Assembly (NCBI GenBank): GCA_022376925.1
Contig: JAIOJX010000025.1
Location: 97,491,608-97,555,607 of the forward strand
Source of the DNA: Tragulus kanchil
Taxonomy: Eukaryota; Chordata; Mammalia; Artiodactyla; Tragulidae
DNA: 64,000 nt
Direction of reading: 5' to 3'
Made by a program: the position numbers and the translations under genes. The stretch's first letter is position 1, and each line of letters starts with the position of its first letter. Under the pieces are notes generated by a model. That model was not told the origin of the DNA and made no database searches. It saw only the letters and a program-made list of their open reading frames with translations. Below, piece by piece: positions 1-61,260 of the stretch.

Positions 1-1993
1 AAGTAAGAAAATGTTAACCAGTTACTTGCCTGACAGGAGCAAGGAATGATTTGGATGACGATAATAATAATGAGATTGATAGAATAGAAGGAATTCTTTT
101 TTAAAAATCCATATACAATTCAAAATTGAAGCTTTTATTTCCATTTTGGAAAGTTTCTTCTAACAGCTGTATAATGTAGGGGAAGAATGCTTGAATAAAG
201 CAGACCAAGTGGAGAAATACAGCAAAAATCCAGATGACAAATAATAGTGAACTGAATGGATGTGATGGTTATTGGAATGGGAAAATGTCAAAGAGATAAA
301 CTTATTAGAACTTTGCAATTGGTAGTGTTTGCGGGGATGAGGAAAAATAAGTTGTCAAAGTAATACATATATTTTTAATTTCAAAACAAGACAAATGGTG
401 GGCAAATTATTCTACTTCTCTGATCTACATGTTCATATGTGAAGTAGAGAGGCATACCTGATGAGCATATTAGAGCATTCCAGTGAAAGAATGGGAAAGC
501 ACCCAGAAATGACAGAAGTAACGCTTATAAGAAGAAAGTTTTCTTATTGAATGCATATAATTTATTGAAAAATAAATGATTATTTTAGCACATAAGAAAT
601 GTGGGAAGGCTTCACAAAATAGCTAACAATATGAACAAAATTCACAAGGGCATGGATGTGTATGATCACCTCCTATTCTTTGTTGGAACCTAAATGACCA
701 GAACATGAAGAGTCAGAATCAATTTTAATTTATGCCTCATTCTTGAGAAAAATAGACAATGATAACTATGCATATTTCTCATGAGACAAGAATTTGAGAA
801 ACTTTGACTCTTTCCCAACAGAATACCATGCTTATATTACCAAATTGGGCAAGGGGATCTCAAACCATGTATGCTCCTAGAAAGACCTTCAATAAATCCC
901 CCAACTGGGAACCACCAAAAAAAATCTCCTTGACCATCGGGAAATGGTCTCTCTGATATTTGCTGTACTCTTAATTTCCTGAACAATATGTCCTTTCTTT
1001 CCATGTGTCTCTTTTGGAAGGTCTTCCTGAGGTTTCCTGTGGTATTGTAATTCCTGTGGATTTTGCACAGTGGTTTTGTGATGTTTAAGACTTCAAGAAA
1101 AGTAAGAAAATGTTAACCAGTTACTTGCCTGACAGGAGCAAGGAATGATTTGGATGACGATAATAATAATGAGATTGATAGAATAGAAGGAATTCTTTTT
1201 TAAAAATCCATATACAATTCAAAATTGAAGCTTTTATTTCCATTTTGGAAAGTTTCTTCTAACAGCTGTATAATGTAGGGGAAGAATGCTTGAATAAAGC
1301 AGACCAAGTGGAGAAATACAGCAAAAATCCAGATGACAAATAATAGTGAACTGAATGGATGTGATGGTTATTGGAATGGGAAAATGTCAAAGAGATAAAC
1401 TTATTAGAACTTTGCAATTGGTAGTGTTTGCGGGGATGAGGAAAAATAAGTTGTCAAAGTAATACATATATTTTTAATTTCAAAACAAGACAAATGGTGG
1501 GCAAATTATTCTACTTCTCTGATCTACATGTTCATATGTGAAGTAGAGAGGCATACCTGATGAGCATATTAGAGCATTCCAGTGAAAGAATGGGAAAGCA
1601 CCCAGAAATGACAGAAGTAACGCTTATAAGAAGAAAGTTTTCTTATTGAATGCATATAATTTATTGAAAAATAAATGATTATTTTAGCACATAAGAAATG
1701 TGGGAAGGCTTCACAAAATAGCTAACAATATGAACAAAATTCACAAGGGCATGGATGTGTATGATCACCTCCTATTCTTTGTTGGAACCTAAATGACCAG
1801 AACATGAAGAGTCAGAATCAATTTTAATTTATGCCTCATTCTTGAGAAAAATAGACAATGATAACTATGCATATTTCTCATGAGACAAGAATTTGAGAAA
1901 CTTTGACTCTTTCCCAACAGAATACCATGCTTATATTACCAAATTGGGCAAGGGGATCTCAAACCATGTATGCTCCTAGAAAGACCTTCAATA
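1..1993 (+). repeat. Direct duplication D1 (period 1099)
   Basis: Bases 1-894 recur at 1100-1993 with no difference that I could find by eye. The two copies are separated by 205 bases present only once (895-1099). Copy 1 begins at the window edge, so it may extend further left. After the shared 'accttcaata' the two copies diverge abruptly. I recognise no repeat family in the unit. Confidence 0.95.
895..1099. other. Single-copy spacer inside D1
   Basis: These 205 bases lie between the two D1 copies and occur once. They look like ordinary genomic sequence rather than low-quality filler. No gene or repeat family is recognised. D1 is the only duplication here with such a long insert between copies. 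Confidence 0.7.
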
Positions 1994-2302
1994 CTCACAA
2001 CTGAACCACCATTCTCTGTGGACAGCATCGGGACTATTCTCATTATTTGCTCTGTGTCTGCAAGATAGAATATAGACAAAACTGAGCAGATCCCAGAAGG
2101 CATTTTTTGACTATGGCACAGCCATCTCCAAACCAATGCCTCTAAACAGCTCTATTGAGAAGAGCTGACTTGCCTAGCTGTTCAGTCACACAGTTCTATT
2201 CCTTAAGAAATGAGTAAATTTCTATTATGTAAAATTAGTGAATGTTAAAGTTCATTTGCTGTAGCAGCTAGTTTTTCTTTTTAATACACTATTGCTGTTA
2301 TT
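1994..2302. other. Unique sequence, nothing recognised
   Basis: AT-rich sequence between D1 and a BovB-derived fragment. Short open frames cross it but show no codon structure or similarity I recognise. Confidence 0.5.
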
Positions 2303-2505
2303 AAGTTGCTAAATAGTGTCTGACTCTATGAGACCCCATGGACTGCAGCACAGCAAGTTCCTCTGTTCTCCCCTCTCTCCTAGAGTCTGCTCGGATTCAT
2401 GTGCATTGAGTCAGTGATGCTATATAACCATCTCATCCTCAACTGCCCTCTTCTCCTTTTGCTTTCAGGCTTTCCCAGCATCAGGGTCTTTTCTAATGAG
2501 TTGAC
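2303..2505 (-). mobile_element. BovB/ART2A-type LINE 3' fragment
   Basis: The stretch reads as a diverged reverse-oriented BovB 3' region: 'gagaccccatggactgcagc', a 'gagtcagtgatgc' block, 'catctcatcctc' and a 'cagcatcagggtcttttc' block occur in BovB order. It is cut short at about 2505, where a Bov-tA begins. BovB is an RTE-clade LINE abundant in ruminants. Confidence 0.75.
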
Positions 2506-2690
2506 TATGCTGTGCTAAGTTGCTTCAATATGAGGCTCCTCTGTCCAATGACTTCTCGAGACAACAATACTGGAGTGGGTTGCCATGTCTTCCTCCAGGG
2601 AGTCCTCCTGACTCAGGGATCAAGCCCCCATCTCTTACGTCTCCTACATAGGCAAGCAGATTCTTTATCACTAGTGCCACATGAGAATCG
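2506..2690 (-). mobile_element. Bov-tA SINE
   Basis: Reverse-oriented tRNA-Glu/BovA composite SINE. It carries the BovA blocks 'ggctcctctgtcc' and 'tactggagtgggttgccatg', then the tRNA-derived part ending in 'gattctttatcactagtgcc', equivalent to the usual 'gagccaccagggaagcc' end. It abuts the BovB fragment directly. Open frames on both strands here are SINE-derived, not genes. Confidence 0.8.
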
Positions 2691-3116
2691 ACTGTACATT
2701 TTACTAATTTATTTATCCCCTTCCTCAACAAGATTCCCCTATCTTAGGATCTCCCTAAGAGTCTGCATCCTTGGTGGTGCTCCTGAATAGCTGAAGGAAA
2801 GCCAAGGGATAACTACTTCTGCACATTTTGCTGTATGGGAAAGATACACTCCTTTTTGTTTCCTATTACTTTGATTTTTCTGTTACTCGAAGAGCATTTC
2901 CAATTGATATAACATTAGTGAAGATAACTGAAGAAATTCAGCCTCAAAAGTGGAGTTCTATATGACAATTCTTGATGAGGTTAAGTGAATATTAGCTCGT
3001 TTTATATGAGGTAAACAAGTACCCATTCTGTTCAAACAGGAAGAACAAGTACAATGGCATCATTGCTTTTGTAGGAAATGTAGGTATGTAATCAAAATAC
3101 CTGTGATATTTGTATC
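2691..3116. other. Unique sequence, nothing recognised
   Basis: AT-rich spacer between two SINEs. I see no gene, RNA or repeat family. Confidence 0.5.
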
Positions 3117-3127
3117 TGGCCAATCTT

Positions 3128-5110: not shown

Positions 5111-5220
5111 GTCAGTCAGTACATATTTTTTAATGAGTATATACTATGGGCTCTGAATGATACAAATATGAATGCAATGCTTTTCTGACACTCAAGGATT
5201 TATAAAAATTATGATGAAGG

Positions 5221-5587
5221 TGTCTAAGTCCATTTAAGCTGCTATGACAAAAACACTATTCTACATATATACGAAAGTCTAACTCTTTGTTATGCCATGG
5301 ACTGTGGAGCCCACCAGGCTCCTCTGTCCATGGGATTCTTCAGACAAAAATACTGGAGTGGGTCACCATGCCCTCCTCCAGGGTATCTTCCTAAATCAGG
5401 GATTGAACTCAGGCCTCCTGCATTTCAGGCAGATTATTTACTGTCTTGGTCACCAGGGAAGTCAAAATACTATTAACTGGGTATTTTGTAAACAATAATT
5501 TTTGTTTCTCATAGTTCTGTAGGCTGGGAAGTCCAAGCTTATGGTGCCAGCAGATTCAGTGGCTTGTGAGAACACTTTCCTCCTTGA
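5221..5587 (-). mobile_element. MLT1 (MaLR) LTR, left part, D2 copy 1
   Basis: Reverse-oriented MLT1 LTR: 'tgtctaagtccatttaagct' at the 3' end of the LTR, then, after a SINE insertion, 'gtttctcatagttctgtagg' and 'ctgggaagtccaag'. MLT1 is a solitary LTR of the old ERVL-MaLR group. No internal retroviral coding sequence is present. It is interrupted by a Bov-tA (5272-5463) and by the truncated ACP1 copy. Confidence 0.8.
5272..5463 (-). mobile_element. Bov-tA SINE in MLT1 (D2 copy 1)
   Basis: Reverse Bov-tA with 'gccatggactgtggagccca', 'ggctcctctgtccatgggat' and the tRNA part 'cttggtcaccagggaagtc'. It sits inside the MLT1 LTR. The flanks 'aaaacactatt' and 'aaaatactatt' look like an 11-bp target-site duplication with one mismatch. 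Confidence 0.85.
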
Positions 5588-5602
5588 CGACCTTTTTCTT
5601 TT

Positions 5603-6242
5603 TTTTGTCTGCATCAAAGACTTTTTATTTATTATTTTGTCAAACACAACAGCTGACTTCCAGCTACAATTATTTTTTCAGATAACAAACAGTGAGTTAA
5701 GAAAGGGCTGTGACCTTGGCTAGGGACTGGTGAGACTGGACTGAAAGCGTGGCCTGGGAGGCGGGGCCGGGGCGGCGGCAGGAGGGACGGGGTCAGCGCG
5801 CCTTCTCCAGGAAGGCGCTACAGCACCGCACGCACTGCTGGTACACCGTCTCAAAGTCAGCATCGTTGCCATAATAGGGCTCTTTGATAAGTTGTTTTTG
5901 TGGATCATAGTTCCCAAGTAATTCGATTGTCGCTCTGCAGTTTTTAACTTGATTACTTTTTCTATTCAAATCTCTCAGATTGCTTTCATCCATACATAGT
6001 ATATAATCAAAAGTAGCAAAGTCTTCCTTGGTAACCTGACTTGCTTTATGGGCTGTGTTAATGCCATAATTTCTTAGGCAGCTCACAGCTCTTGGATCTG
6101 GTGACCGGCCCACATTCCAGTCAGAAACAGCGCCACTGTCAATGATCCAATTTTCTGAAATGTTTCGATCAGTTACAAGTTTCCTGAAAACTGCTTCTGC
6201 GATGGGTGATCGACGGATGTTCCCCAGACACACGAACAACAC
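5603..6242 (-). pseudogene. ACP1: ACP1 retrocopy, 5'-truncated (D2 copy 1)
   Basis: Second, incomplete copy of the ACP1 retrocopy described at 6753-7448, present because of duplication D2. The frame 5793-6242 is identical to the full copy in everything I compared, but it stops at the duplication breakpoint. The first eight codons are missing and no in-frame ATG replaces them. Upstream of the break lies unrelated filler. The 3' UTR and T-tract (poly-A on the gene strand) are kept. If D2 is an assembly artefact this copy does not exist. If D2 is real, it is a dead fragment. Confidence 0.9.
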
Positions 6243-6423
6243 CGGGATTTAAGCCGGTAAATAAAGTCAGTCAGTACATATTTTTAATGATATTACTATG
6301 GGCTCTGAATGATACAAATATGAATGCAATGCTTTTCTGACACTCAAGGATTTATAAAAATTATGATGAAGGTGTCTAAGTCCATTTAAGCTGCTATGAC
6401 AAAAACACTATTCTACATATATA

Positions 6424-6615
6424 CGAAAGTCTAACTCTTTGTTATGCCATGGACTGTGGAGCCCACCAGGCTCCTCTGTCCATGGGATTCTTCAGACAAA
6501 AATACTGGAGTGGGTCACCATGCCCTCCTCCAGGGTATCTTCCTAAATCAGGGATTGAACTCAGGCCTCCTGCATTTCAGGCAGATTATTTACTGTCTTG
6601 GTCACCAGGGAAGTC
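6424..6615 (-). mobile_element. Bov-tA SINE in MLT1 (D2 copy 2)
   Basis: Same SINE insertion as 5272-5463, repeated by duplication D2. It shows no difference from copy 1 that I could see. Confidence 0.85.
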
Positions 6616-6737
6616 AAAATACTATTAACTGGGTATTTTGTAAACAATAATTTTTGTTTCTCATAGTTCTGTAGGCTGGGAAGTCCAAGCTTATGGTGCC
6701 AGCAGATTCAGTGGCTTGTGAGAACACTTTCCTCCTT

Positions 6738-6752
6738 GACGACCTTTTTCTT
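6738..6752. repeat. Left target-site duplication of ACP1 retrocopy
   Basis: The 15 bases 'gacgacctttttctt' recur exactly at 7449-7463. They flank the retrocopy on both sides, with the poly-A (T-run on this strand) directly inside. This is the hallmark of L1-mediated retroposition. On the gene strand the duplication starts with AAGAAAA, close to the preferred L1 endonuclease target. Confidence 0.9.
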
Positions 6753-7448
6753 TTTTGTCTGCATCAAAGACTTTTTATTTATTATTTTGTCAAACACAAC
6801 AGCTGACTTCCAGCTACAATTATTTTTTCAGATAACAAACAGTGAGTTAAGAAAGGGCTGTGACCTTGGCTAGGGACTGGTGAGACTGGACTGAAAGCGT
6901 GGCCTGGGAGGCGGGGCCGGGGCGGCGGCAGGAGGGACGGGGTCAGCGCGCCTTCTCCAGGAAGGCGCTACAGCACCGCACGCACTGCTGGTACACCGTC
7001 TCAAAGTCAGCATCGTTGCCATAATAGGGCTCTTTGATAAGTTGTTTTTGTGGATCATAGTTCCCAAGTAATTCGATTGTCGCTCTGCAGTTTTTAACTT
7101 GATTACTTTTTCTATTCAAATCTCTCAGATTGCTTTCATCCATACATAGTATATAATCAAAAGTAGCAAAGTCTTCCTTGGTAACCTGACTTGCTTTATG
7201 GGCTGTGTTAATGCCATAATTTCTTAGGCAGCTCACAGCTCTTGGATCTGGTGACCGGCCCACATTCCAGTCAGAAACAGCGCCACTGTCAATGATCCAA
7301 TTTTCTGAAATGTTTCGATCAGTTACAAGTTTCCTGAAAACTGCTTCTGCGATGGGTGATCGACGGATGTTCCCCAGACACACGAACAACACTGACTTGG
7401 TCACCTGCTCAGCCATCTTCCAGCGCGGGCAGAGGCGCTCACTGATCC
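6753..7448 (-). pseudogene. ACP1: ACP1 processed retrocopy with intact reading frame
   Basis: Intronless copy of the mRNA for low-molecular-weight protein tyrosine phosphatase, a cytosolic enzyme. CDS 6943-7416 encodes 157 residues (parent 158), starting [16 protein letters not shown], without stop or frameshift. A short 5' UTR (7417-7448) and a 3' UTR with poly-A remnant (6753-6942) are present. The segment after NISENW ([13 protein letters not shown]...) matches the alternative exon of the 'slow' isoform. The P-loop keeps the nucleophile Cys13 and Arg19 (counting Met), but the second active-site Cys (position 18, mature Cys17) is Arg. Near residues 126-132 the parental IIEDPYY reads IKEPYY: one codon is lost and the general acid Asp129 appears changed to Glu. 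Both changes argue against normal activity. The retrocopy lies inside an MLT1 LTR with no evident promoter, so I call it a pseudogene despite the open frame. Confidence 0.92.
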
Positions 7449-8374: not shown

Positions 8375-10576
8375 ATATTCCTTATTCAGTGGGAAAAAAT
8401 AGGCTTCTTAGGATTGTAAATTTTAGGCAAGCACTAAAAGGTAAAAATTTACATTGAATCTTGTAAATAATTCTAAACAAACTACAGCAGATGGATGATC
8501 TCTAACTCTCTCTTCTAAGAGCTATTTTCCAGAAGAATCCATGGACTCCTTTGTGTATTTTTGTGTACTTTCCATAGGTTCTCCGTCATATATGTATTTG
8601 ATATAATGTTTTATACCATGAAACTACATTTAAACAGAGATGAACCATGCATTTTTAATTGACCCCCAAAGAGACCTGACATCAGTTAGTGTCTAAATAT
8701 AGACTTACTAAGTTCTACCCACATCTCTGGAGCAGGGTCTTGCATGCCAGCCATTTCCTCCCTGTCTCTGTTCCCTTGACACTTTTTATAAAGCTTTAAT
8801 GTTACAAGAATACTCCACAAGACAGTGCAGAGGCAATCATAATTTAGTAGCAGTATTATGACCTTGAAGTACTGTTTAGAATAAATACGTTAATTTCTAT
8901 GAAGAATTTGACCTTTTATGAGGAAAAAGTAGGATACAAAAGTCTCGAATACTTCTTCCTGGATTTTAACGTATTGGCCTATTTTTTGCCAGATGTTTTG
9001 ATTTTAGTAATTTATTTTTGGTTCCACATAAATGACAATATTCCTCTCAAACTGTATAAAGAATGAATATTCATGGAAAAATAGGTCATTAAACATTATA
9101 TTTGGCATTTCTGCTCAGTGCCAAGATGTAGTGATGTGGTGGGAAAGTTCCAAATTATTAATGCATTCATTCCTTTGAATGACTGTAAACTTTTCCTTTT
9201 ATGGATGGAATTTTCCCATCCCAGTTTTATCTTAATTTTTTTCATATACTACGTCTCTATAAAGCACATAATCTACCCAAGACAGCTAATGGTTTAATAC
9301 CCGCCAGATGTTTAAAACCATATAGGAATAAAATAAAGTAGAAAGACAAAATAATTAAACGACTAATATCATGACCATGACACTCATTAGAAGACTTTTG
9401 TATTTCCTGGTAAGTAGCATATGTTTGGGGATAATTTCAGATCACAGAACAAATGTCAGTTTTTGCATATTCAGATATTCCTTATTCAGTGGGAAAAAAT
9501 AGGCTTCTTAGGATTGTAAATTTTAGGCAAGCACTAAAAGGTAAAAATTTACATTGAATCTTGTAAATAATTCTAAACAAACTACAGCAGATGGATGATC
9601 TCTAACTCTCTCTTCTAAGAGCTATTTTCCAGAAGAATCCATGGACTCCTTTGTGTATTTTTGTGTACTTTCCATAGGTTCTCCGTCATATATGTATTTG
9701 ATATAATGTTTTATACCATGAAACTACATTTAAACAGAGATGAACCATGCATTTTTAATTGACCCCCAAAGAGACCTGACATCAGTTAGTGTCTAAATAT
9801 AGACTTACTAAGTTCTACCCACATCTCTGGAGCAGGGTCTTGCATGCCAGCCATTTCCTCCCTGTCTCTGTTCCCTTGACACTTTTTATAAAGCTTTAAT
9901 GTTACAAGAATACTCCACAAGACAGTGCAGAGGCAATCATAATTTAGTAGCAGTATTATGACCTTGAAGTACTGTTTAGAATAAATACGTTAATTTCTAT
10001 GAAGAATTTGACCTTTTATGGGGAAAAAAGTAGGATACAAAAGTCTCGAATACTTCTTCCTGGATTTTAACGTATTGGCCTATTTTTTGCCAGATGTTTT
10101 GATTTTAGTAATTTATTTTTGGTTCCACATAAATGACAATATTCCTCTCAAACTGTATAAAGAATGAATATTCATGGAAAAATAGGTCATTAAACATTAT
10201 ATTTGGCATTTCTGCTCAGTGCCAAGATGTAGTGATGTGGTGGGAAAGTTCCAAATTATTAATGCATTCATTCCTTTGAATGACTGTAAACTTTTCCTTT
10301 TATGGATGGAATTTTCCCATCCCAGTTTTATCTTAATTTTTTTCATATACTACGTCTCTATAAAGCACATAATCTACCCAAGACAGCTAATGGTTTAATA
10401 CCCGCCAGATGTTTAAAACCATATAGGAATAAAATAAAGTAGAAAGACAAAATAATTAAACGACTAATATCATGACCATGACACTCATTAGAAGACTTTT
10501 GTATTTCCTGGTAAGTAGCATATGTTTGGGGATAATTTCAGATCACAGAACAAATGTCAGTTTTTGCATATTCAGA
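8375..10576 (+). repeat. Direct duplication D3 (period 1100-1101)
   Basis: Copy 1 is 8375-9474 and copy 2 is 9475-10576, joined head to tail without filler. The join shares the short motif 'atattc'. I saw only one site of difference, near 8921/10021 (gagg against gggg, with one extra A in the A-run). The unit holds no recognised repeat or gene. Confidence 0.95.
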
Positions 10577-11225
10577 TAAAGTGCATTTAAAATAATTAGG
10601 TGTTTTGATAGAAAAATAAATCTCAAAAATAACACTTCTATGGCCTAGCCTAAATTGTACATGAAGATTATTAATCACCTATCACAATTCCATGTTATTA
10701 TATCAAGAGAATCAAGAGAATAATAATTATATAGAATATTAGACTTGATTAGAAATATATCTGACATTGACAAATTAGTAAGACAAATTTTAAACACTAT
10801 ATGTAGTCAATTCCACTTTAAGATTATAGACATTACCTATAATTTACTTGTAGTAAAGTAGGAGATGACTGTTATTTTGTAGAGGGAAACAGACGATGTA
10901 AATATGTGAGGTGTGACAAGGGAAATAATCAATTTTCCAAAAAGAAATCACAGAGGATGGTCTTATGTTTGTGTCTTCAAACATTCATGTTAGTGTTGCA
11001 GTGTTTAGAAATACTGAATTGTCTGATTGATAGTAATTCAATACATAAGAGGAAGAGGCATATAAATCAATCACTAGTAAGTTCATTTCAGGAGGGACAC
11101 TCCTTCCAAATAACCAGACTAATTCTGTCTGTCAGAGAGTATCCATTCTAGTTTGTAGTTTCATGGAAAACTAGATTATCAGTATTTGGAATGTTTTTTG
11201 AAGAGCATGGGGATTTAAAGCAAAA
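10577..11225. other. Unique sequence, nothing recognised
   Basis: AT-rich. An 81-codon plus-strand frame at 10906-11151 has no recognisable domain. Confidence 0.5.
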
Positions 11226-11348
11226 GCAGCTGGTGAGTTTGGCCAGGATGAGTAGGTACCACTGTAAAGTGACTAGACAGTAAGTCTTTTTCTTCGACAT
11301 GGTATAGTTCTTTGGAAGTTACTTTCTAGATCTTGCAGTCAACCACAT

Positions 11349-11625
11349 TATTATTATTATTATTATTTTTGCCCAATTCTATTGGTCTTTCATTTATTTA
11401 TCATTCATCTTTGTTCTTTGGCCTGTGTGGGACTCCCATTACAGAGGTCTCTCTCGCTGCAGAGTAATGGCTCTGGGCGCATGTGCTCCAGAATGCTCGT
11501 TCGGTAGTTGGACACATAGGTCCAGCTGCTATGCGGCATGTGGAATCTTTCCAGGCCAGGGATTGAACCAGTGCCCCTTGCATTGCAAGGCATTGTCTCT
11601 CCCCACTGGACCACCAGGGAAGCCC
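11349..11625 (-). mobile_element. CHR-type SINE (variant form), D4 copy 1
   Basis: Reverse SINE ending in the tRNA-Glu-derived 'ggaccaccagggaagccc' and beginning with a (TTA)n/T-rich tail. The middle contains 'attggtctttcattt', 'tggctctgggcgcatg' and 'gtagttggacacat', blocks also present in the SINE at 48196-48530 but unlike the usual CHR middle. An 8-9 bp target-site duplication 'aaccacat' is at 11341-11348 and 11626-11633. Confidence 0.8.
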
Positions 11626-11909
11626 AACCACATCTTTTAATTCAGTCTTTGCTAAGATATAAAATTTTAATTTGTCACTTTCAAATTTAAATCCCAGTAT
11701 AGACAAGCCACGTAAATTATTTCTACATCACCTTCAGCAGTGTTCCAGATGTTCCCAACAGTTGTAAGCCACATATTTACAACTTAGCTTATGATCAGAT
11801 TTTTCTGATAATATTCAAAGTCTCAGAGAATCACTTTATTTATTGGCTTGTCTGTTTGTTTACCTATTTCTTATGAAGTACTCACCTCAAGGTCATCACT
11901 TTTTGCTTT

Positions 11910-12307
11910 ATTTTTTTTTAATTTTTATTTTGCTTTTTACTTTTACAGAGTTTTGTTATTTACAGATATGTATGATCCCAGATTAGTCATATGTATAACC
12001 CCCATATCCCACCCCTCCAAGTCATCGCACAACACCCCTGCAGGACACCTTTTTCTCAAAGCACAATGACAATAGCTATTTTTTTCACATATGATAGTAT
12101 AGGTTTTCATGCTACTTCCTTTACGCCTCCTACCCACTGTTCATACCCCACAATGTCCATATGTCTACTGTCCATGTCTGTTTTTCCAACACTTCACTGC
12201 ATGTGTTATCATTACCATCCTACTAGATTCCATATATGTGTGTTAGTATATTGTACTTGTCCATTGTATATATGTACCAGAGCTGCTTTATCCATTCATT
12301 CGTCGAT
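11910..12307 (-). mobile_element. L1 3' tail, extra copy from D4
   Basis: This is the 3' end of the minus-strand L1 (poly-T tail at about 11910, then 3' UTR) repeated by duplication D4. It is cut off at 12307 at the duplication edge. It is not an independent insertion, because the flanks are duplicated too. Confidence 0.85.
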
Positions 12308-12452
12308 TCAAAGTAGGTTTAACAAAAAAGCAGCTGGTGAGTTTGGCAAGGATGAGTAGGTACCACTGTAAAGTGACTAGACAGTAAGTCTTTTTCTTCG
12401 ACATGGTATAGTTCTTTGGAAGTTACTTTCTAGATCTTGCAGTCAACCACAT

Positions 12453-12729
12453 TATTATTATTATTATTATTTTTGCCCAATTCTATTGGTCTTTCATTTA
12501 TTTATCATTCATCTTTGTTCTTTGGCCTGTGTGGGACTCCCATTACAGAGGTCTCTCTCGCTGCAGAGTAATGGCTCTGGGCGCATGTGCTCCAGAATGC
12601 TCGCTCGGTAGTTGGACACATAGGTCCAGCTGCTATGCGGCATGTGGAATCTTTCCAGGCCAGGGATTGAACCAGTGCCCCTTGCATTGCAAGGCATTGT
12701 CTCTCCCCACTGGACCACCAGGGAAGCCC
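12453..12729 (-). mobile_element. CHR-type SINE (variant form), D4 copy 2
   Basis: Second copy of the SINE at 11349-11625, including its target-site duplication, produced by D4. Confidence 0.8.
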
Positions 12730-12999
12730 AACCACATCTTTTAATTCAGTCTTTGCTAAGATATAAAATTTTAATTTGTCACTTTCAAATTTAAATCCCA
12801 GTATAGACAAGCCACGTAAATTATTTCTACATCACCTTCAGCAGTGTTCCAGATGTTCCCAACAGTTGTAAGCCACATATTTACAACTTAGCTTATGATC
12901 AGATTTTTCTGATAATATTCAAAGTCTCAGAGAATCACTTTATTTATTGGCTTGTCTGTTTGTTTACCTATTTCTTATGAAGTACTCACCTCAAGGTCA

Positions 13000-13013
13000 T
13001 CACTTTTTGCTTT
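13000..13013. repeat. Probable L1 target-site duplication, 3' side
   Basis: The motif 'tcactttttgcttt' matches 'tcaccttttccttt' at 22152-22165 with two mismatches. Position and length fit an old L1 insertion. The same motif appears again at 11896-11909 because of D4. Confidence 0.6.
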
Positions 13014-13543
13014 ATTTTTTTTTAATTTTTATTTTGCTTTTTACTTTTACAGAGTTTTGTTATTTACAGATATGTATGATCCCAGATTAGTCATATGTAT
13101 AACCCCCATATCCCACCCCTCCAAGTCATCGCACAACACCCCTGCAGGACACCTTTTTCTCAAAGCACAATGACAATAGCTATTTTTTTCACATATGATA
13201 GTATAGGTTTTCATGCTACTTCCTTTACGCCTCCTACCCACTGTTCATACCCCACAATGTCCATATGTCTACTGTCCATGTCTGTTTTTCCAACACTTCA
13301 CTGCATGTGTTATCATTACCATCCTACTAGATTCCATATATGTGTGTTAGTATATTGTACTTGTCCATTGTATATATGTACCAGAGCTGCTTTATCCATT
13401 CATTCGTCGATGGGCATCTAGGTTGCTTCCATGTTCTAGCTATTGTATAGAGAGCTGCAATGAACATTGGGTACAGGTGCTTCTTTCAGATTTGATTTCA
13501 TCAGGGTATAAGCCTGTCGTATGGTGCTTCTATTTTTAGTTTT

Positions 13544-14635: not shown

Positions 14636-14691
14636 GAGTGTCTTGTAATTTTCTGTGCACAGTTCTTTTGTTTATTTGCGTAGGTTTATTC

Positions 14692-47752: not shown

Positions 47753-48195
47753 AAAGCCCAACAATGCCCTAAAGTCCAACCAGACTGTATTACCTCTTGC
47801 TCTCAGAGGTCACCTTCATGTCTCTGCAGATGTAGTCACTCCGTCAGGAATTCTTTATGTTCCTCTACATTCACTTTCAAATACTATACCCATCCTGCAG
47901 AGCATCTTTCAGATGGCTTCTCTCTGTGAAGATGTGATTGTATCTTCTTTTAACCCAGTAACACTCTGTGGACATCACTCCTATTTCACATCTGACTATT
48001 TTAGAACCGTCACTATGAATGGATCCTAGTCTATTTGCTTGTAAGACTCTTGAGAGCAGTTGTTCCTTTACTCATCTTTGCTTCCCAGCAGAGTGTATTG
48101 TACACAAATGACACCAATATTGTACACAGACATTCAGTTCTAAAATATGAAATGGACACTTCAGTTTCCCCTTAGGGCTGACCTACTCCATTTTA

Positions 48196-48530
48196 TTATT
48201 ATTTTTTAAAGATTTATTTATTCATTTTTATTTTGGGGTGGGGGTCGGGTTGGGAAGGAGGGGAGCGGGCAGGCCACTTCTATTGGTCTTTCATTTCTCT
48301 GTTTTCATTCATCTTTGTTCTTTGACTCCTGCAGGCCTCCCATCATGGTGGCATCTGTCGTTGCACAGCACTGGCTCTGGGCGCATGCGCTCCAGAGCTC
48401 CGGCTCGGTGATTGGACACATCAGTCCAGCCGCTCCGCGGCATGTGGGATCTTCCCAGGCCAGGGATCGAAGTGGCGCCCCTTACACTGCAAGGCGGTGT
48501 CCTTATCCACTGGACCATCAGGGGAAGCCC
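48196..48530 (-). mobile_element. CHR-type SINE (variant form), D16 copy 1
   Basis: Reverse tRNA-Glu-derived SINE ending 'actggaccatcaggggaag'. It shares 'ctattggtctttcattt', 'ttcattcatctttgttcttt', 'tggctctgggcgcatg' and 'gattggacacat' blocks with the SINE at 11349-11625, so both belong to one variant. It carries a G-rich stretch at 48235-48269. A 16-bp target-site duplication with one mismatch is at 48180-48195 and 48531-48546. Open frames of 81-109 codons here are SINE-derived. Confidence 0.85.
48235..48269 (+). other. G-rich tract with quadruplex potential
   Basis: Six G-runs of three or more bases within 35 bases (GGGG T GGGGG TC GGG TT GGG, then GGGG and GGG after short loops). This fits the standard G-quadruplex pattern on the plus strand. 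It lies inside the CHR SINE and is repeated at 49311-49345. Confidence 0.75.
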
Positions 48531-49271
48531 GACCTGCTCCATTTTAGAGGACAAGGGAGGCTCTGGCCTCCTAGGTCTTCACATTTATCTATACTTTTAT
48601 CGAAACACTCTGTTATTCCAATTTGTCTTTATATCAGTTATTAGTGGCCATAATCAGGAAGAATGGACTAAGAGGGAACACAAAAGTTTTCAACTTTCTA
48701 GTTTGGCTCCTTATTCATCCTTTGCCTGAGTGTCTGCATATACAATTTCAAGGTCCAAGGTAGAGTGGAATACTATCAGGGGGCATTTTCCAGGCCACAC
48801 CCTTAGTAACTATGGTAGCATTGTACTATCTTACAGAAAAGCCCAAATGGCCAACCCTTAGTACAGCTGTATTACCTCTTGCTCTCAGAGGTCACCTTCA
48901 TGTCTCAGATGGCACTCCGTCAGGAATTCCTTCTGTTCCTCTACATTCACTTTCAAATACTATACCCATCCTGCAGAGCATCTTTCAGATGGCTTCTCTC
49001 TGTGAAGATGTGATTGTATCTTCTTTTAACCCAGTAACACTCTGTGGACATCACTCCTATTTCACATCTGACTATTTTAGAACCGTCACTATGAATGGAT
49101 CCTAGTCTATTTGCTTGTAAGACTCTTGAGAGCAGTTGTTCCTTTACTCATCTTTGCTTCCCAGCAGAGTGTATTGTACACAAATGACACCAATATTGTA
49201 CACAGACATTCAGTTCTAAAATATGAAATGGACACTTCAGTTTCCCCTTAGGGCTGACCTACTCCATTTTA

Positions 49272-49606
49272 TTATTATTTTTTAAAGATTTATTTATTCA
49301 TTTTTATTTTGGGGTGGGGGTCGGGTTGGGAAGGAGGGGAGCGGGCAGGCCACTTCTATTGGTCTTTCATTTCTCTGTTTTCATTCATCTTTGTTCTTTG
49401 ACTCCTGCAGGCCTCCCATCATGGTGGCATCTGTCGTTGCACAGCACTGGCTCTGGGCGCATGCGCTCCAGAGCTCCGGCTCGGTGATTGGACACATCAG
49501 TCCAGCCGCTCCGCGGCATGTGGGATCTTCCCAGGCCAGGGATCGAAGTGGCGCCCCTTACACTGCAAGGCGGTGTCCTTATCCACTGGACCATCAGGGG
49601 AAGCCC
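49272..49606 (-). mobile_element. CHR-type SINE (variant form), D16 copy 2
   Basis: Second copy of 48196-48530, including G-rich tract and target-site duplication. Confidence 0.85.
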
Positions 49607-49925
49607 GACCTGCTCCATTTTAGAGGACAAGGGAGGCTCTGGCCTCCTAGGTCTTCACATTTATCTATACTTTTATCGAAACACTCTGTTATTCCAATTT
49701 GTCTTTATATCAGTTATTAGTGGCCATAATCAGGAAGAATGGACTAAGAGGGAACACAAAAGTTTTCAACTTTCTAGTTTGGCTCCTTATTCATCCTTTG
49801 CCTGAGTGTCTGCATATACAATTTCAAGGTCCAAGGTAGAGTGGAATACTATCAGGGGGCATTTTCCAGGCCACACCCTTAGTAACTATGGTAGCATTGT
49901 ACTATCTTACAGAAAAGCCCAAATG

Positions 49926-51639: not shown

Positions 51640-51770
51640 TTGACAGTCACTGTTATTTTCCTACTTTACCAAAGAGTAAATTGTATAAAGTTACACCTCC
51701 TAATTAGTAAAGATGGGTCCTTGAACTGTACTTCTAACACTTACAGCACACTTCTACCCATATCCACATG
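51640..51770 (-). mobile_element. MIR SINE
   Basis: Reverse MIR: 'cactgttattttcctacttt', 'accaaagagtaaattgtata', 'aagttacacctcctaattag', 'taaagatgggtccttgaact'. Duplication D17 starts inside it, so its right part recurs at 52773-52855. Confidence 0.65.
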
Positions 51771-52211
51771 TTTATTCAACTTCATAGTAAATTTGAAATA
51801 AGTGTTATAACTTTTTTAGATGAAGATGCTGAGGTTACGGAAATTTGCTACTTATTCCTGTATATGTATATATGAACTTGCTATCCCTTCAAAGAAATTG
51901 TGGTGTCCTATAGAAAAACCACAAGCAGTAAATTAGGTCCTCAAGATTTAGAAAGTTGCTCCAAATTTTGGCAGCTAGTAAGATGATGAAAAGGGTAAGT
52001 ACAAATATGTGTAGTTCCCAAACCTTCTCACCTTCCAGTTAAGCTTAGTGGCTTCTCAAAGTAGCCTAGACAAGGACAGCAAGGCAGTGCCATTCTATTA
52101 GGATATTTCTAGGTGAAATTTTGGTTAGATGTTATTGATTTGTAATTGTTTTCACTTAAGTTGGTCATATTTGCTAGAGATCGCAAAGATATTTGAGTCC
52201 CTAGCACAGAT

Positions 52212-52404
52212 ATGGGATTCCTTGGTGGCTCAGACAACAAAGTGTCTGCAATGCAAGAGACCCAGGTGTGACCTCTGGGCGGGGAAGGTCCCCTAGAGTA
52301 GGAAATGACAAGCTGCTTCAGTATTCTTACCTGGAGAATCCCATGGGCTATAGTCAAGTTCATGGGAATACAAATGGTCAAACATGACTGAGCAACTAAC
52401 ATGC
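52212..52404 (+). mobile_element. Bov-tA SINE (D17 copy 1)
   Basis: Forward Bov-tA beginning 'gggattccttggtggctcag', with 'caatgcaagagacccaggtg', 'tcagtattcttacctggaga' and 'atgactgagcaactaacatg'. Flanked by the exact 9-bp duplication 'agcacagat' at 52203-52211 and 52405-52413. Repeated at 53297-53488. Confidence 0.9.
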
Positions 52405-52473
52405 AGCACAGATTTAGGCACATACATGACAGAAAGTAAATGGAAAATTTGACAAATCACATCCTATTATACT

Positions 52474-52498
52474 AAAAAAAAAAAAAAAAAAAAAAAAA
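52474..52498 (+). repeat. A25 homopolymer (D17 copy 1)
   Basis: Uninterrupted run of 25 A, with an identical run of 25 A at 53558-53582 in D17 copy 2. It is not next to a recognised retroelement end. Confidence 0.9.
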
Positions 52499-53296
52499 CA
52501 GGGGAAAGAAGCCTTCATTTTACTGCTCGTCAAAATAAGTCTTCATTCAAAGGATCAGGCAGAAGAGTTATAAGTCAGAATCCTTAAGTTTTACATTATT
52601 ATTCTGGATATTGACTTTCTGATGACCAATATGAGGAAACTCACCATTTAACCACAGAAAGGAAATAATACAGCCTGGAGCAATGCCAGTGTGAGAGGGA
52701 AGGGACAAAAGGAAGTCTTCTGAGTTAGAAGGACAATCTGCTAAAAGCCACATTCGGTTAACATTTTTGGGCAAGTTACACCTCCTAATTAGTAAAGATG
52801 GGTCCTTGAACTGTACTTCTAACACTTACAGCACACTTCTACCCATATCCACATGTTTATTCAACTTCATAGTAAATTTGAAATAAGTGTTATAACTTTT
52901 TTAGATGAAGATGCTGAGGTTACGGAAATTTGCTACTTATTCCTGTATATGTATATATGAACTTGCTATCCCTTCAAAGAAATTGTGGTGTCCTATAGAA
53001 AAACCACAAGCAGTAAATTAGGTCCTCAAGATTTAGAAAGTTGCTCCAAATTTTGGCAGCTAGTAAGATGATGAAAAGGGTAAGTACAAATATGTGTAGT
53101 TCCCAAACCTTCTCACCTTCCAGTTAAGCTTAGTGGCTTCTCAAAGTAGCCTAGACAAGGACAGCAAGGCAGTGCCATTCTATTAGGATATTTCTAGGTG
53201 AAATTTTGGTTAGATGTTATTGATTTGTAATTGTTTTCACTTAAGTTGGTCATATTTGCTAGAGATCGCAAAGATATTTGAGTCCCTAGCACAGAT

Positions 53297-53488
53297 ATGG
53301 GATTCCTTGGTGGCTCAGACAACAAAGTGTCTGCAATGCAAGAGACCCAGGTGTGACCTCTGGGCGGGGAAGGTCCCTAGAGTAGGAAATGACAAGCTGC
53401 TTCAGTATTCTTACCTGGAGAATCCCATGGGCTATAGTCAAGTTCATGGGAATACAAATGGTCAAACATGACTGAGCAACTAACATGC
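53297..53488 (+). mobile_element. Bov-tA SINE (D17 copy 2)
   Basis: Second copy of 52212-52404, one C shorter, with the same flanking 'agcacagat' motifs. Confidence 0.9.
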
Positions 53489-53666
53489 AGCACAGATTTA
53501 GGCACATACATGACAGAAAGTAAATGGAAAATTTGACAAATCACATCCTATTATACTAAAAAAAAAAAAAAAAAAAAAAAAACAGGGGAAAGAAGCCTTC
53601 ATTTTACTGCTCGTCAAAATAAGTCTTCATTCAAAGGATCAGGCAGAAGAGTTATAAGTCAGAATC

Positions 53667-55816
53667 CTTAAGTTTTACATTATTATTCTGGATATTGACT
53701 TTCTGATGACCAATATGAGGAAACTCACCATTTAACCACAGAAAGGAAATAATACAGCCTGGAGCAATGCCAGTGTGAGAGGGAAGGGACAAAAGGAAGT
53801 CTTCTGAGTTAGAAGGACAATCTGCTAAAAGCCACATTCGGGTTAACATGTGGTGATGTTATTGGGGCATTTGATATATAGTTAATTAGGCTTTGCTTTA
53901 CTGTAACCTTTTTGAATTCCCATTTCCCACCAAGTTGGCTTGTGTGTGACTGAAATTTGACACCATGTTCACCATTCCAGTAGTTGTATTTCTTGTTTTA
54001 TGTTTTAATAGACAAATCTAATCCAGTATTTTAAAGCATTTATTTGCAGAGTTCCCCAAAAAAATTCCTTTACCTTCCCTCTATGAACCCATATTCATGT
54101 CAATATCGTATACATTATCTTGGATTTTGACATACCTTTGTTCCCTACTAGATAATGAAATTATTAAAAGGAACTCTATTATTATAGAGTTTTTGCACTT
54201 TTGCACTTTTTAGCTTTGTTTAAAGTAAGTTGTCAATAAAAATTAACTTATGATTGAAATTTTAAAATGCAGTCATCTAAGCCTCCAGCTTTGTTTATAC
54301 TGAGTCCATTGTGGAATTGGATATTGGGAAGGAGTCCTTTAAAAAAAGAAAGCGAACTTTATAAATATATGGTGGTGGTAGAAGTATTCTAACTTCTTTC
54401 AGTTAAAATATTATTACTTGGATCGGGCACGCATTGTGTTGGAAAGGGATTGAGTGACTTGTTGGTTACATGGTTTGTAAGATTTAGGGAAGGGAAGGAG
54501 TAGGAGCTATTTGATATCTTCTGCCTGCCTTTGGTGTCTACTCTGTGCTCCAGGAGATTGGTGTATTCTTTATTGGTCTCTGCCTTCCATTTTGGTGTAG
54601 TCTATGCAAACACAGGCAGGTATCAGAAGGAGGGAGGCAATGAAGTATGGGAATCTACTACACTGGCTTTCTTCCTCTTTGGTCATCACAATTGAAATGT
54701 TCTTCTGCCATAAGTCATAATTCCTATGTACCTCACAATTCTTAAGTTTTACATTATTATTCTGGATATTGACTTTCTGATGACCAATATGAGGAAACTC
54801 ACCATTTAACCACAGAAAGGAAATAATACAGCCTGGAGCAATGCCAGTGTGAGAGGGAAGGGACAAAAGGAAGTCTTCTGAGTTAGAAGGACAATCTGCT
54901 AAAAGCCACATTCGGGTTAACATGTGGTGATGTTATTGGGGCATTTGATATATAGTTAATTAGGCTTTGCTTTACTGTAACCTTTTTGAATTCCCATTTC
55001 CCACCAAGTTGGCTTGTGTGTGACTGAAATTTGACACCATGTTCACCATTCCAGTAGTTGTATTTCTTGTTTTATGTTTTAATAGACAAATCTAATCCAG
55101 TATTTTAAAGCATTTATTTGCAGAGTTCCCCAAAAAAATTCCTTTACCTTCCCTCTATGAACCCATATTCATGTCAATATCGTATACATTATCTTGGATT
55201 TTGACATACCTTTGTTCCCTACTAGATAATGAAATTATTAAAAGGAACTCTATTATTATAGAGTTTTTGCACTTTTGCACTTTTTAGCTTTGTTTAAAGT
55301 AAGTTGTCAATAAAAATTAACTTATGATTGAAATTTTAAAATGCAGTCATCTAAGCCTCCAGCTTTGTTTATACTGAGTCCATTGTGGAATTGGATATTG
55401 GGAAGGAGTCCTTTAAAAATATAAAGCTAACTTTATAAATATATGGTGGTGGTAGAAGTATTCTAACTTCTTTCAGTTAAAATATTATTACTTGGATCGG
55501 GCACGCATTGTGTTGGAAAGGGATTGAGTGACTTGTTGGTTACATGGTTTGTAAGATTTAGGGAAGGGAAGGAGTAGGAGCTATTTGATATCTTCTGCCT
55601 GCCTTTGGTGTCTACTCTGTGCTCCAGGAGATTGGTGTATTCTTTATTGGTCTCTGCCTTCCATTTTGGTGTAGTCTATGCAAACACAGGCAGGTATCAG
55701 AAGGAGGGAGGCAATGAAGTATGGGAATCTACTACACTGGCTTTCTTCCTCTTTGGTCATCACAATTGAAATGTTCTTCTGCCATAAGTCATAATTCCTA
55801 TGTACCTCACAATTCT
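53667..55816 (+). repeat. Direct duplication D18 (period 1074)
   Basis: Copy 1 is 53667-54740 and copy 2 is 54741-55816, joined at a shared 'ctt' without filler. One small block differs (aaaaaaagaaagcgaac against aaaaatataaagctaac, near 54340/55415). It overlaps D17, so the segment 52583-52763 occurs three times. No repeat family is recognised in the unit. Confidence 0.95.
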
Positions 55817-56696
55817 TCTTTTCTCTTCCCAGGTTCTGTAACCACACCAATTCCACTTATTTCTTCAGACACAAAAGTTGGAAATTTTCCCAGCTATCAT
55901 CAGCTATAAGAGTACTGCATTGATATGCATTATATTCTCTAAGTCCTCCACAAATTTGAATACTGTCTCTTTTTCAAACTCATCTCAATTATAATTATGT
56001 ACTGCAGGAATGCTGTTTCTGGTTGACAGTGAAGATATTGACAGTATTATATGTTACCATTGGTTACTATTTACAGAACACCTCCATATGGGAGACATCT
56101 CGAGGTAACAGGAAAATAGAAAAAGCAAAGTCTGTATCATTAGGTCCTTAACTCATTAGCTTTTTCCATGTGACCTCAAATAATCACTTCCATTTTTTGC
56201 CCCTGTGTTGCACTGATGTGATTTGAATTTTCACTGTATTAGGCAAAGGGCTATGTGTGGTTATGTGGATGTAGCCACAAATCTCAATAAGAGGAAATGG
56301 AGAAACCAAAGTGTGGTAGAAGTTAAAATACTAATGCTACCATACATTTATAAAATCAGCTGCACATTTTTAAAGGACTTGCCACAATTTCCAATACCAT
56401 AACGGACTCGCTGTAAACAAAGATGAGGCACAGATGATTGCACTCTAGTATTTCATTCAATTCTCAAAATCGTGGAAACAAAATTTTAGTTCTTCTTTCT
56501 TAGATGTCTTTCTTGGATCTGTTCTAGTGTGTTATGAGTGTGAATTGCAGAATGCATTTGAGGAATGCTTCCTGAATTTGTAGAATTTTTCCTTGGGAAA
56601 ACAAGTGGGGATACTTTGATTAAATGCAGGTGGAACATACTTTGTTTATTTGTTTTGAAGTGTGAGGGAAAACCTTGACTAACAGAAAAGTAATTA
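55817..56696. other. Unique sequence, nothing recognised
   Basis: AT-rich single-copy DNA with no supported gene or repeat. Confidence 0.5.
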
Positions 56697-59021: not shown

Positions 59022-59344
59022 ACTTTATTGCCTATTTCAATGTTTATTTCTCATTTCCTCCAACTACCTGCTTTTCTTCTCTATAGTCAGACAACAATTT
59101 CCTGCCTGAATGTCCAGAGTTTTATTTTGTATTTTCAATTCTATCTTCTGGGTTTAAAATAGTTTCTTCTGTATGTTTCATTGAAATGCTACCAGTTTCT
59201 CTTCCAAATTCCTTATACAGAAGAAATCAGAAATTCCAAGACACTGGCTTCTGGGTGCATTCAGAATATGCATTCACAGTTCTTGGAATGTTCACAAATA
59301 TGTATTGTTATATATGTTGCACAAAAGAGGAAATTAAGGTTGAG

Positions 59345-59527
59345 AGGTAATTATTATAATAGCAATAATTATAATAGTTAATGTATTTTTATCTTCTAGG
59401 AACTGTGATTTGTCTGTTGTAGGACTTATTTAATCCATACAATAATTCTAAAAGGTGGATAGCATTGTCTCTATTTCATAGGAGAAAATGAAACTCAAAA
59501 GTATTAAATAATTGGCCTATTGAGTAC
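59345..59527 (-). mobile_element. MIR SINE (D19 copy 1)
   Basis: Reverse MIR over most of its length: 'aataattataatagttaatg', 'acttatttaatccatacaat', 'aattctaaaaggtggatagc', 'ctctatttcataggagaaaa', 'tgaaactcaaaagtatt'. Repeated at 60464-60646. Confidence 0.8.
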
Positions 59528-59697
59528 GGACCTTTAACTCTCATTTTGTAAAGAGATCCCCTAAATGGTATTTACAACATAAGTCATAGGACAATTGACA
59601 CAATTTCTGTGATTAACCCCAGCTCTCATGTAAAACTCATTTCTACCAAAATATCACATAAGGTATGTTGATTTTTCCCAAGGTTAAAAAAAAAAAG

Positions 59698-60100
59698 TTC
59701 TTTGGTCTGTGCTGGCCTGCTTAAACAAAATACCACAGAATGTGTAATTTATAAATAGCAGAAGTTTATTGTTCACGGTTTGGGAGGCTGAAAGTCCAAG
59801 TTCAAGATGCTGGCTGGCATGGTCCTGTCATGGTAAAGGCCCTCTTCTTGAATCATAACCAATGCCTTCTCTCCGTCCACCTTACATGGTGACAGGGACC
59901 GCGATCTCTCTGGAGCCTCCTTTATAACAGCACTCATCCCATTCAGCAAGGAGCAACTGGGGACACTAGCACACATGCACGAAGGCTTTGGTCACATGAA
60001 CTAGGAATCTCCCGAAGTTTCCACCTCCTAATGCTATCATCCTTAGAGGCTATCACTTTAACATGTAACTTTTGGGGGCACAAACATTCAGATCATAGCA
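59698..60100 (-). mobile_element. MLT1 (MaLR) LTR (D19 copy 1)
   Basis: Nearly complete reverse MLT1 LTR: 'aaacaaaataccacagaatg', 'agaagtttattgttcacggt', 'gggaggctgaaagtccaag', 'ctctctggagcctcctttat', 'tttccacctcctaatgctat', terminal 'cagatcatagca'. It is a solitary LTR of the old ERVL-MaLR group, with no internal coding region. Repeated at 60817-61219. Confidence 0.88.
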
Positions 60101-60816
60101 TGTGATAATGTCAATACAGAGTCTACTAGCTGGTATTCTTACTTTATTGCCTATTTCAATGTTTATTTCTCATTTCCTCCAACTACCTGCTTTTCTTCTC
60201 TATAGTCAGACAACAATTTCCTGCCTGAATGTCCAGAGTTTTATTTTGTATTTTCAATTCTATCTTCTGGGTTTAAAATAGTTTCTTCTGTATGTTTCAT
60301 TGAAATGCTACCAGTTTCTCTTCCAAATTCCTTATACAGAAGAAATCAGAAATTCCAAGACACTGGCTTCTGGGTGCATTCAGAATATGCATTCACAGTT
60401 CTTGGAATGTTCACAAATATGTATTGTTATATATGTTGCACAAAAGAGGAAATTAAGGTTGAGAGGTAATTATTATAATAGCAATAATTATAATAGTTAA
60501 TGTATTTTTATCTTCTAGGAACTGTGATTTGTCTGTTGTAGGACTTATTTAATCCATACAATAATTCTAAAAGGTGGATAGCATTGTCTCTATTTCATAG
60601 GAGAAAATGAAACTCAAAAGTATTAAATAATTGGCCTATTGAGTACGGACCTTTAACTCTCATTTTGTAAAGAGATCCCCTAAATGGTATTTACAACATA
60701 AGTCATAGGACAATTGACACAATTTCTGTGATTAACCCCAGCTCTCATGTAAAACTCATTTCTACCAAAATATCACATAAGGTATGTTGATTTTTCCCAA
60801 GGTTAAAAAAAAAAAG

Positions 60817-61219
60817 TTCTTTGGTCTGTGCTGGCCTGCTTAAACAAAATACCACAGAATGTGTAATTTATAAATAGCAGAAGTTTATTGTTCACGGTTT
60901 GGGAGGCTGAAAGTCCAAGTTCAAGATGCTGGCTGGCATGGTCCTGTCATGGTAAAGGCCCTCTTCTTGAATCATAACCAATGCCTTCTCTCCGTCCACC
61001 TTACATGGTGACAGGGACCGCGATCTCTCTGGAGCCTCCTTTATAACAGCACTCATCCCATTCAGCAAGGAGCAACTGGGGACACTAGCACACATGCACG
61101 AAGGCTTTGGTCACATGAACTAGGAATCTCCCGAAGTTTCCACCTCCTAATGCTATCATCCTTAGAGGCTATCACTTTAACATGTAACTTTTGGGGGCAC
61201 AAACATTCAGATCATAGCA
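60817..61219 (-). mobile_element. MLT1 (MaLR) LTR (D19 copy 2)
   Basis: Second copy of 59698-60100 created by D19. Frames of 67 codons within both copies are chance. Confidence 0.88.
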
Positions 61220-61260
61220 TGTGATAATGTCAATACAGAGTCTACTAGCTGGTATTCTTA

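What the first reader, a model, noticed from the sequence alone, without database searches (positions are those of the whole stretch)
1..61260. Nineteen tandem duplications of one size (about 1.06-1.20 kb) across unrelated DNA
By direct reading I find 19 head-to-tail duplications with copy joins near 1100, 6254, 9475, 12320, 14772, 19477, 23845, 25740, 29153, 32152, 34018, 36108, 37991, 40789, 44314, 48838, 52768, 54741 and 60141. Periods range from 1061 to about 1197, most between 1070 and 1130. Units include young L1, old L1M, BovB, SINEs, LTRs and plain DNA, so no element family drives them. Copies are nearly identical, so all events look equally recent. About 20 kb of 64 kb is second-copy sequence. 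Join spacing is irregular (1.9-5.4 kb). The simplest explanation is an assembly fault: overlapping contig ends or gap-fill patches kept twice, or two haplotypes laid in tandem. If real, it would be an undescribed burst of short templated duplications.
Basis: partly seen in the sequence, partly recalled or inferred. Interest (0 to 1): 0.85.

Follow-up and report, generated by a model that had tools for sequence, protein, structure and literature searches.

The report
Assembler kept 1-kb overlaps twice
The nineteen 1.1-kb tandem duplications are really in the sequence file, but the same thing turns up wherever the assembly was sampled, so it is almost certainly a genome-assembly fault that pads the sequence by roughly half again and not something the animal's DNA does.

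Summary
Observation confirmed: all 19 head-to-tail duplications are present (periods 1061-1197, 20,335 second-copy bases). The pattern is not local: 16 of 16 ten-kb stretches taken blind from 9 contigs of the same assembly show it (51 joins, 33.8% second-copy sequence). Forkhead exons and SINE-like matches elsewhere are also doubled at 1061-1187 bases (9 pairs in each search). Over 70 joins the period is 1110 +/- 39, never below 1024; 53 measured join spacings are never below 1721. At many joins the copy ends run on as a diverged version of the other copy's surroundings. The best explanation is a long-read assembler of the wtdbg type, whose graph nodes are 1024-base read segments (PMC10989838, passage): neighbouring edges share one node, and here the shared node was written twice. 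The program name is inferred; the artefact itself is near certain. The assembly (3.17 Gb, 32 contigs) is inflated; at the sampled rate about 2.1 Gb would remain. Not a biological feature.

The parts
1..1993 (.). join 1: copies 1-894 (clipped by window start) and 1100-1993, period 1099; 205 bases between that do not pair as one fringe
5142..7392 (.). join 2: copies 5142-6242 and 6294-7392, period 1150-1152; diverged second-copy head 6243-6293
8375..10578 (.). join 3: copies 8375-9477 and 9475-10578, period 1100-1101; 3 bases shared at join
11245..13411 (.). join 4: copies 11245-12307 and 12349-13411, period 1104; diverged second-copy head
13711..15822 (.). join 5: copies 13711-14761 and 14772-15822, period 1061
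18377..20582 (.). join 6: copies 18377-19481 and 19477-20582, period 1100-1101; 5 bases shared
22758..24944 (.). join 7: copies 22758-23846 and 23856-24944, period 1098; overlaps join 8 by 260 bases, giving a triplicated stretch
24685..26810 (.). join 8: copies 24685-25714 and 25782-26810, period 1096-1097; diverged tail and head
28102..30227 (.). join 9: copies 28102-29156 and 29173-30227, period 1071
30996..33299 (.). join 10: copies 30996-32140 and 32156-33299, period 1159-1160; overlaps join 11 by 332 bases
32968..35082 (.). join 11: copies 32968-33992 and 34058-35082, period 1090; diverged tail; overlaps join 12 by 31 bases
35052..37203 (.). join 12: copies 35052-36109 and 36142-37203, period 1090-1094; diverged head with deletions
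36862..39079 (.). join 13: copies 36862-37952 and 37990-39079, period 1127-1128; overlaps join 12 by 342 bases
39592..41971 (.). join 14: copies 39592-40778 and 40789-41971, period 1193-1197
43239..45392 (.). join 15: copies 43239-44318 and 44314-45392, period 1074-1075; 5 bases shared
47858..49925 (.). join 16: copies 47858-48849 and 48934-49925, period 1076; 84 bases of diverged second-copy head
51688..53841 (.). join 17: copies 51688-52757 and 52773-53841, period 1084-1085; overlaps join 18 by 175 bases
53667..55817 (.). join 18: copies 53667-54743 and 54741-55817, period 1074; 3 bases shared
59022..61264 (.). join 19: copies 59022-60145 and 60141-61264, period 1119, identical copies; 5 bases shared

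Best explanation
Assembly artefact. A long-read assembler of the wtdbg/wtdbg2 type built contigs as chains of edges between nodes, each node being a 1024-base read segment. A separate consensus was made for each edge, and two neighbouring edges both include their shared node. The step that should align the two consensus ends and keep the node once failed, or was skipped, so the node was written twice. Later polishing (inferred) made the two copies nearly identical except at the joint, where poor consensus ends remain. Shown: the duplications, their presence wherever sampled, the size floor, the spacing floor, the diverged ends and the indel-rich differences. Inferred: the program, the failed joint step, the polishing, and that the joint side of each diverged end is the corrupt one. 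The artefact as such I hold at about 0.99; the figure below is for the wtdbg-type cause.
For: (1) Not local: 16 of 16 ten-kb stretches chosen blind on 9 contigs, GC 0.31-0.62, hold 1-4 such duplications. (2) Two searches show doubling at other places: 9 pairs 1061-1149 apart among 51 Forkhead-domain rows (17 rows), and 9 pairs 1070-1187 apart among the 40 DNA rows of 200 bits or more (18 rows; 7 weaker rows left out; 40 of 23,225 candidates were scored). In these rows no same-strand pair under 5 kb lies at any other distance except one double step of 2200 (Forkhead pairs had to share 20 profile positions). (3) 70 periods: mean 1110, sd 39, minimum exactly 1024, none below, one above 1200. wtdbg2 chops reads into 1024-bp segments that become vertices (PMC10989838, passage). 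(4) 53 join spacings: none below 1721, 19 of 53 within 1721-2110; an exponential law with the same mean would give no shorter value with probability about 2e-14. Nodes with limited overlap predict such a floor. (5) 38 of 70 join fringes could be analysed: 67.5% identity to the surroundings of the other copy, score 0.36 per base against 0.13 for random targets, 31 of 38 above their control. (6) Copy interiors, 30 bases trimmed at each end: 120 events in 68,268 columns over 68 pairs, 87 of them indels, 53 in homopolymers.
Against: No raw reads, assembler name or log could be seen. That wtdbg-type edges get separate consensus sequences sharing a node is recalled, not from a call. Fringe errors are not clearly deletion-biased (129 deletions, 113 insertions, 104 substitutions), so the idea that Nanopore deletions stretch 1024 raw bases to about 1110 is not confirmed; the first count (118 deletions, 51 insertions) looked more biased but included join 1, whose gap does not align as one fringe. 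Overlap between neighbouring units reaches 437 bases, more than the 256-base default I recall for wtdbg2. 7 of 38 fringes do not beat their control. In the window alone, indels are only 13 of 25 copy differences. Inspector's paper reports more collapses, not expansions, for wtdbg2 on Nanopore reads (PMC8590762, passage). Removing second copies leaves about 2.1 Gb, low for a ruminant as I recall. The five gapless joins of the window share 3-5 bases, more than blunt joins would (P of 3 or more 0.07, of 5 or more 0.009 each); of the 13 gapless joins in the samples only 4 share 3 or more (gaps). I read this as the joiner settling on a short chance overlap, which is untested. The spacing figures are rough: joins are placed at the middle of the gap, 10-kb samples cut off long spacings, and the script could merge two joins closer than about 1.26 kb.
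Confidence: 0.8

Rival explanations
1. A different assembly fault: another program or a post-processing step (contig stitching, chunk-wise polishing, gap filling) kept about 1-kb overlaps twice.
For: The finding in 16 of 16 samples fits any systematic software fault. Unit overlaps up to 437 bases do not match the wtdbg2 default that I recall.
Against: Chunk-wise polishing would be expected to give regular spacing; spacing here is irregular, 1721-5401. Gap filling would not recur about every 3 kb. Read-overlap assemblers would be expected to give a broad overlap-length distribution, not sd 39 with a floor at 1024 = 2^10 (these expectations are from general knowledge).
Confidence: 0.18
2. Two haplotypes, or overlapping contig ends, laid in tandem (false haplotypic duplication).
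For: Copies are similar but often not identical: 51 of 68 pairs show at least one difference, and in the window 12 of 25 differences are substitutions.
Against: Haplotypic duplications have variable length, usually far above 1 kb (recalled). Here the length is fixed, and over all 68 pairs 87 of 120 differences are indels.
Confidence: 0.01
3. A real genome-wide burst of templated 1.1-kb tandem duplications.
For: The copies exist in the deposited sequence, and the five gapless joins of the window carry 3-5 bases of microhomology.
Against: It would need roughly one event per 3.1 kb over 3.17 Gb (0.323 joins per kb in the samples), all of one size and age, also doubling Forkhead exons in the same way. 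It does not explain why near-identity stops sharply and runs on as a strongly diverged fringe at the joint.
Confidence: 0.005

Closest known systems
wtdbg2 fuzzy-Bruijn-graph contig layout (Ruan and Li 2020; paper not held; described in PMC10989838, passage seen)
   Same: Unit of 1024 bases of read; contigs as chains of units. The minimum period seen here is 1024.
   Different: In a sound wtdbg2 assembly the shared node is kept once (recalled). Here it is present twice at joint after joint. Overlap of neighbouring units (up to 437) exceeds the default I recall.
'Expansion' structural errors in long-read assemblies (Inspector, PMC8590762, passages seen)
   Same: Sequence present more often in the assembly than in the genome.
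   Different: Its table lists 5-2527 structural errors of all types per HG002 assembly (2226 for wtdbg2 on Nanopore reads), 84.8% shorter than 500 bp. Here the sampled rate is one per about 3 kb, at one size, independent of content.
Segmental duplications of the cattle genome (PMC2796684, search listing only)
   Same: 1 kb or longer, high identity.
   Different: The listing gives 3.1% of the cattle genome as recently duplicated; here one third of sampled sequence is second-copy, at one size.

Membership tests
Assembly joint duplication (wtdbg-type node kept twice) | Occurs across the assembly, independent of sequence content | tested here: met
   16 of 16 blind samples on 9 contigs, GC 0.31-0.62; pairs on C17, C26, C30 and C31 as well; C23, C27 and C32 not shown
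Assembly joint duplication (wtdbg-type node kept twice) | Duplicated unit is about one node (1024 read bases) | tested here: met
   70 periods, minimum 1024, mean 1110, one above 1200; node size from PMC10989838. That 1024 read bases become about 1110 is assumed
Assembly joint duplication (wtdbg-type node kept twice) | Minimum spacing because nodes may overlap only in part | tested here: met
   53 spacings, none below 1721, pile-up just above; joins closer than about 1.26 kb could have been merged by the script
Assembly joint duplication (wtdbg-type node kept twice) | Maximum node overlap of 256 read bases (recalled default) | tested here: not met
   21 positive overlaps, up to 437 bases; the setting used is unknown
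Assembly joint duplication (wtdbg-type node kept twice) | Low-quality consensus at the joint-side ends of the copies | tested here: inconclusive
   38 fringes, 67.5% identity, 31 of 38 above control show divergence at the joints; the comparison cannot say which side is corrupt
Assembly joint duplication (wtdbg-type node kept twice) | Deletion-biased errors, as expected if the reads were Nanopore | tested here: inconclusive
   129 deletions, 113 insertions, 104 substitutions
Assembly joint duplication (wtdbg-type node kept twice) | No raw read contains both copies | not testable with these tools
   No reads held
Real tandem duplication burst | Restricted to particular loci, elements or sequence contexts | tested here: not met
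   Present in every stretch sampled, and in Forkhead exons and SINE-like matches
False haplotypic duplication | SNP-dominated differences and variable length | tested here: not met
   87 of 120 events are indels over 68 pairs, though 12 of 25 in the window are substitutions; period sd 39

The most novel reading that the evidence does not exclude
A mammalian genome in which about a third of the sequence consists of real, equally recent, 1.1-kb tandem duplications made by a microhomology-guided templated process with a fixed tract length.
Probability: 0.004. Interest if true: 0.97.

Novelty: not a real feature. Interest (0 to 1): 0.12.

Why it matters
A chromosome-scale assembly padded by about half again (second copies are about a third of the sampled sequence) will mislead gene models (doubled exons, as seen for Forkhead genes), copy-number and segmental-duplication catalogues, repeat statistics and genome-size comparisons. 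The signature is cheap to screen for: near-exact self-matches at 1.02-1.26 kb, about one per 3 kb.

Tried and rejected
Deletion bias of the fringes as proof of Nanopore reads: suggested (118 deletions, 51 insertions), not upheld in the larger set (129, 113), so dropped.

Quarter-node (256-base bin) periodicity in the node-to-node advance: not seen; mean distance to the nearest quarter 0.31 against 0.25 by chance.

No title or abstract start in the listings pointed to this assembly or this exact fault, but most listed papers were not opened; I saw passages of four. The wtdbg2 paper itself is not held. I therefore make no claim that the fault is unreported.

Rows left out of counts: 13 of 70 joins were skipped for the fringe count (fringe over 110 bases, too close to an end of the stretch, or N in the way), 19 had no gap to analyse, and 2 of 70 pairs were left out of the interior count. 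In one search, 7 weak rows of the 47 DNA rows were left out. Four of the 16 samples hold N (64-1428 bases); N is taken out of the denominator but not out of the second-copy ranges, so the 33.8% may be slightly high.

Comparison with single-copy orthologues in cattle, sheep or goat was not made: the tools offer no eukaryote collection.
Full report
OBSERVATION. Pairwise alignment gives copies of about 0.89-1.19 kb with 0-7 difference events each: 25 events in all, 13 indels and 12 substitutions, and 7 of 19 pairs without any (my count). Periods are 1061-1197 (mean 1104, sd 34), second-copy sequence is 20,335 bases, and join spacing is 1866-5400. The repeats counted in the window lie at these distances or at sums of two of them, apart from 2 words at distance 1. 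Chance plays no part.

IS IT LOCAL? No. The whole assembly is held as G000: 32 contigs, 3,167,203,957 bases, 16 contigs above 50 Mb. The window is C8:97491608-97555607 on the plus strand. I took 16 ten-kb stretches blind, at round coordinates on contigs C1-C8 and C15. All 16 contain such duplications: 51 joins in 157,850 readable bases, 33.8% second-copy sequence, GC from 0.31 to 0.62. The weakest stretch, L002, holds one join (11% second copy); the strongest, L011, holds four (45%).

TWO FURTHER LOOKS. Searching the assembly with window 2001-5100, which lies between joins 1 and 2, gave one full-length place (the window itself) and many partial, repeat-derived matches; 40 of 23,225 candidates were scored. 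Among the 40 rows of 200 bits or more, 18 form 9 same-strand pairs 1070-1187 bases apart on C2, C3, C7, C8, C17, C26, C30 and C31. Searching with the Forkhead family (PF00250) gave 51 rows, 17 of which form 9 pairs 1061-1149 apart, including one exon present three times on C4. In these rows no same-strand pair under 5 kb lies at another distance, except the 2200-base double step of the triple (Forkhead rows had to share at least 20 profile positions to count). That exons of transcription-factor genes are doubled like repeats and plain DNA speaks against any role of sequence content. With the samples, 13 of the 16 large contigs are shown to be affected; C23, C27 and C32 were not sampled and showed no pair in these two searches.

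SIZE AND SPACING. Over the 70 joins of the window and the samples, the period is 1110 +/- 39, never below 1024 (the minimum is exactly 1024), with one above 1200. A value just above 2^10 points to a software constant. A review describes wtdbg2 as chopping reads into 1024-bp segments that become graph vertices (PMC10989838, passage seen; the wtdbg2 paper is not held). That edges between nodes get separate consensus sequences which share a node is recalled, not seen in a call. Such a scheme predicts duplications one node long and a minimum distance between joints set by the permitted node overlap. The 53 spacings never fall below 1721, and 19 lie within 1721-2110, whereas an exponential law of the same mean would almost surely give shorter ones. 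This is rough: joins are placed mid-gap, short samples cut off long spacings, and the script could merge joins closer than about 1.26 kb. Against the exact default: unit overlaps reach 437 bases, above the 256 that I recall, so the program name stays an inference.

THE JOINTS. At many joins the end of copy 1 or the start of copy 2 runs on as a diverged version of the sequence beyond the other copy. In 38 analysable fringes of 70 joins the identity is 67.5% and the score per base 0.36 against 0.13 for random targets; 31 of 38 beat their control and 7 do not. The comparison shows that the two sides differ, not which is corrupt; that it is the joint side is my inference. Copy interiors are almost the same: 120 difference events in 68,268 columns over 68 pairs (30 bases trimmed at each end), 17 pairs identical, 87 events indels and 53 of these in homopolymers. 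Near-identity that stops sharply and gives way to strong divergence at the joint is how the ends of separately computed consensus sequences would look when polishing cannot reach them (inference). The fringe errors do not show a clear deletion bias (129 deletions, 113 insertions, 104 substitutions), so the read technology is left open. Inspector's paper relates more collapses in Nanopore assemblies to a higher deletion rate, in contrast to insertions in PacBio reads (PMC8590762, passage); it reports more collapses, not expansions, for wtdbg2 there. The five gapless joins in the window share 3, 5, 5, 3 and 5 bases, more than blunt joins would; among 13 gapless joins in the samples 4 share 3 or more (gaps). 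A joiner that settles for a chance overlap would do this, but I did not test it.

CONCLUSION. The duplications are an assembly artefact found wherever the assembly was sampled. The most likely cause is a wtdbg-type assembly in which the node shared by neighbouring edges was written twice. Removing second copies at the sampled rate would leave about 2.1 Gb; this is a rough figure from 16 stretches, and the held assembly may be incomplete. On re-checking I set the confidence of the best explanation to 0.8 (first written as 0.95), because its statement names the wtdbg-type cause; the artefact as such stays at about 0.99.

Noticed in passing
window 15733-18060, minus strand: Two ORFs carry an endonuclease domain (PF03372, 402 aa, 16852-18060) and then a reverse transcriptase domain (PF00078, 286 aa, 15733-16593), the order expected of a LINE (recalled; L1 or BovB not resolved); the last codons of the second lie in the second copy of join 5.
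   Followed up: partly
window 23563, 24661, 56749: A head motif that I recall from ruminant SINEs occurs here with 1-3 mismatches, consistent with a ruminant source; the first two lie 1098 apart, the two copies of join 7.
   Followed up: partly
G000 contigs: 16 contigs of 73-297 Mb plus small ones, some of exactly round length (C14 200000, C16 242000, C25 225000 bases), which may reflect cuts at fixed resolution during scaffolding.
   Followed up: no
G000:C4:69584105-69586538: A Forkhead domain appears three times at steps of 1061 and 1139 bases; gene models here are likely to be wrong.
   Followed up: partly
window joins 3, 6, 15, 18, 19: These five gapless joins share 3-5 bases, more than blunt joins would give; in the samples 4 of 13 gapless joins do so.
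   Followed up: partly
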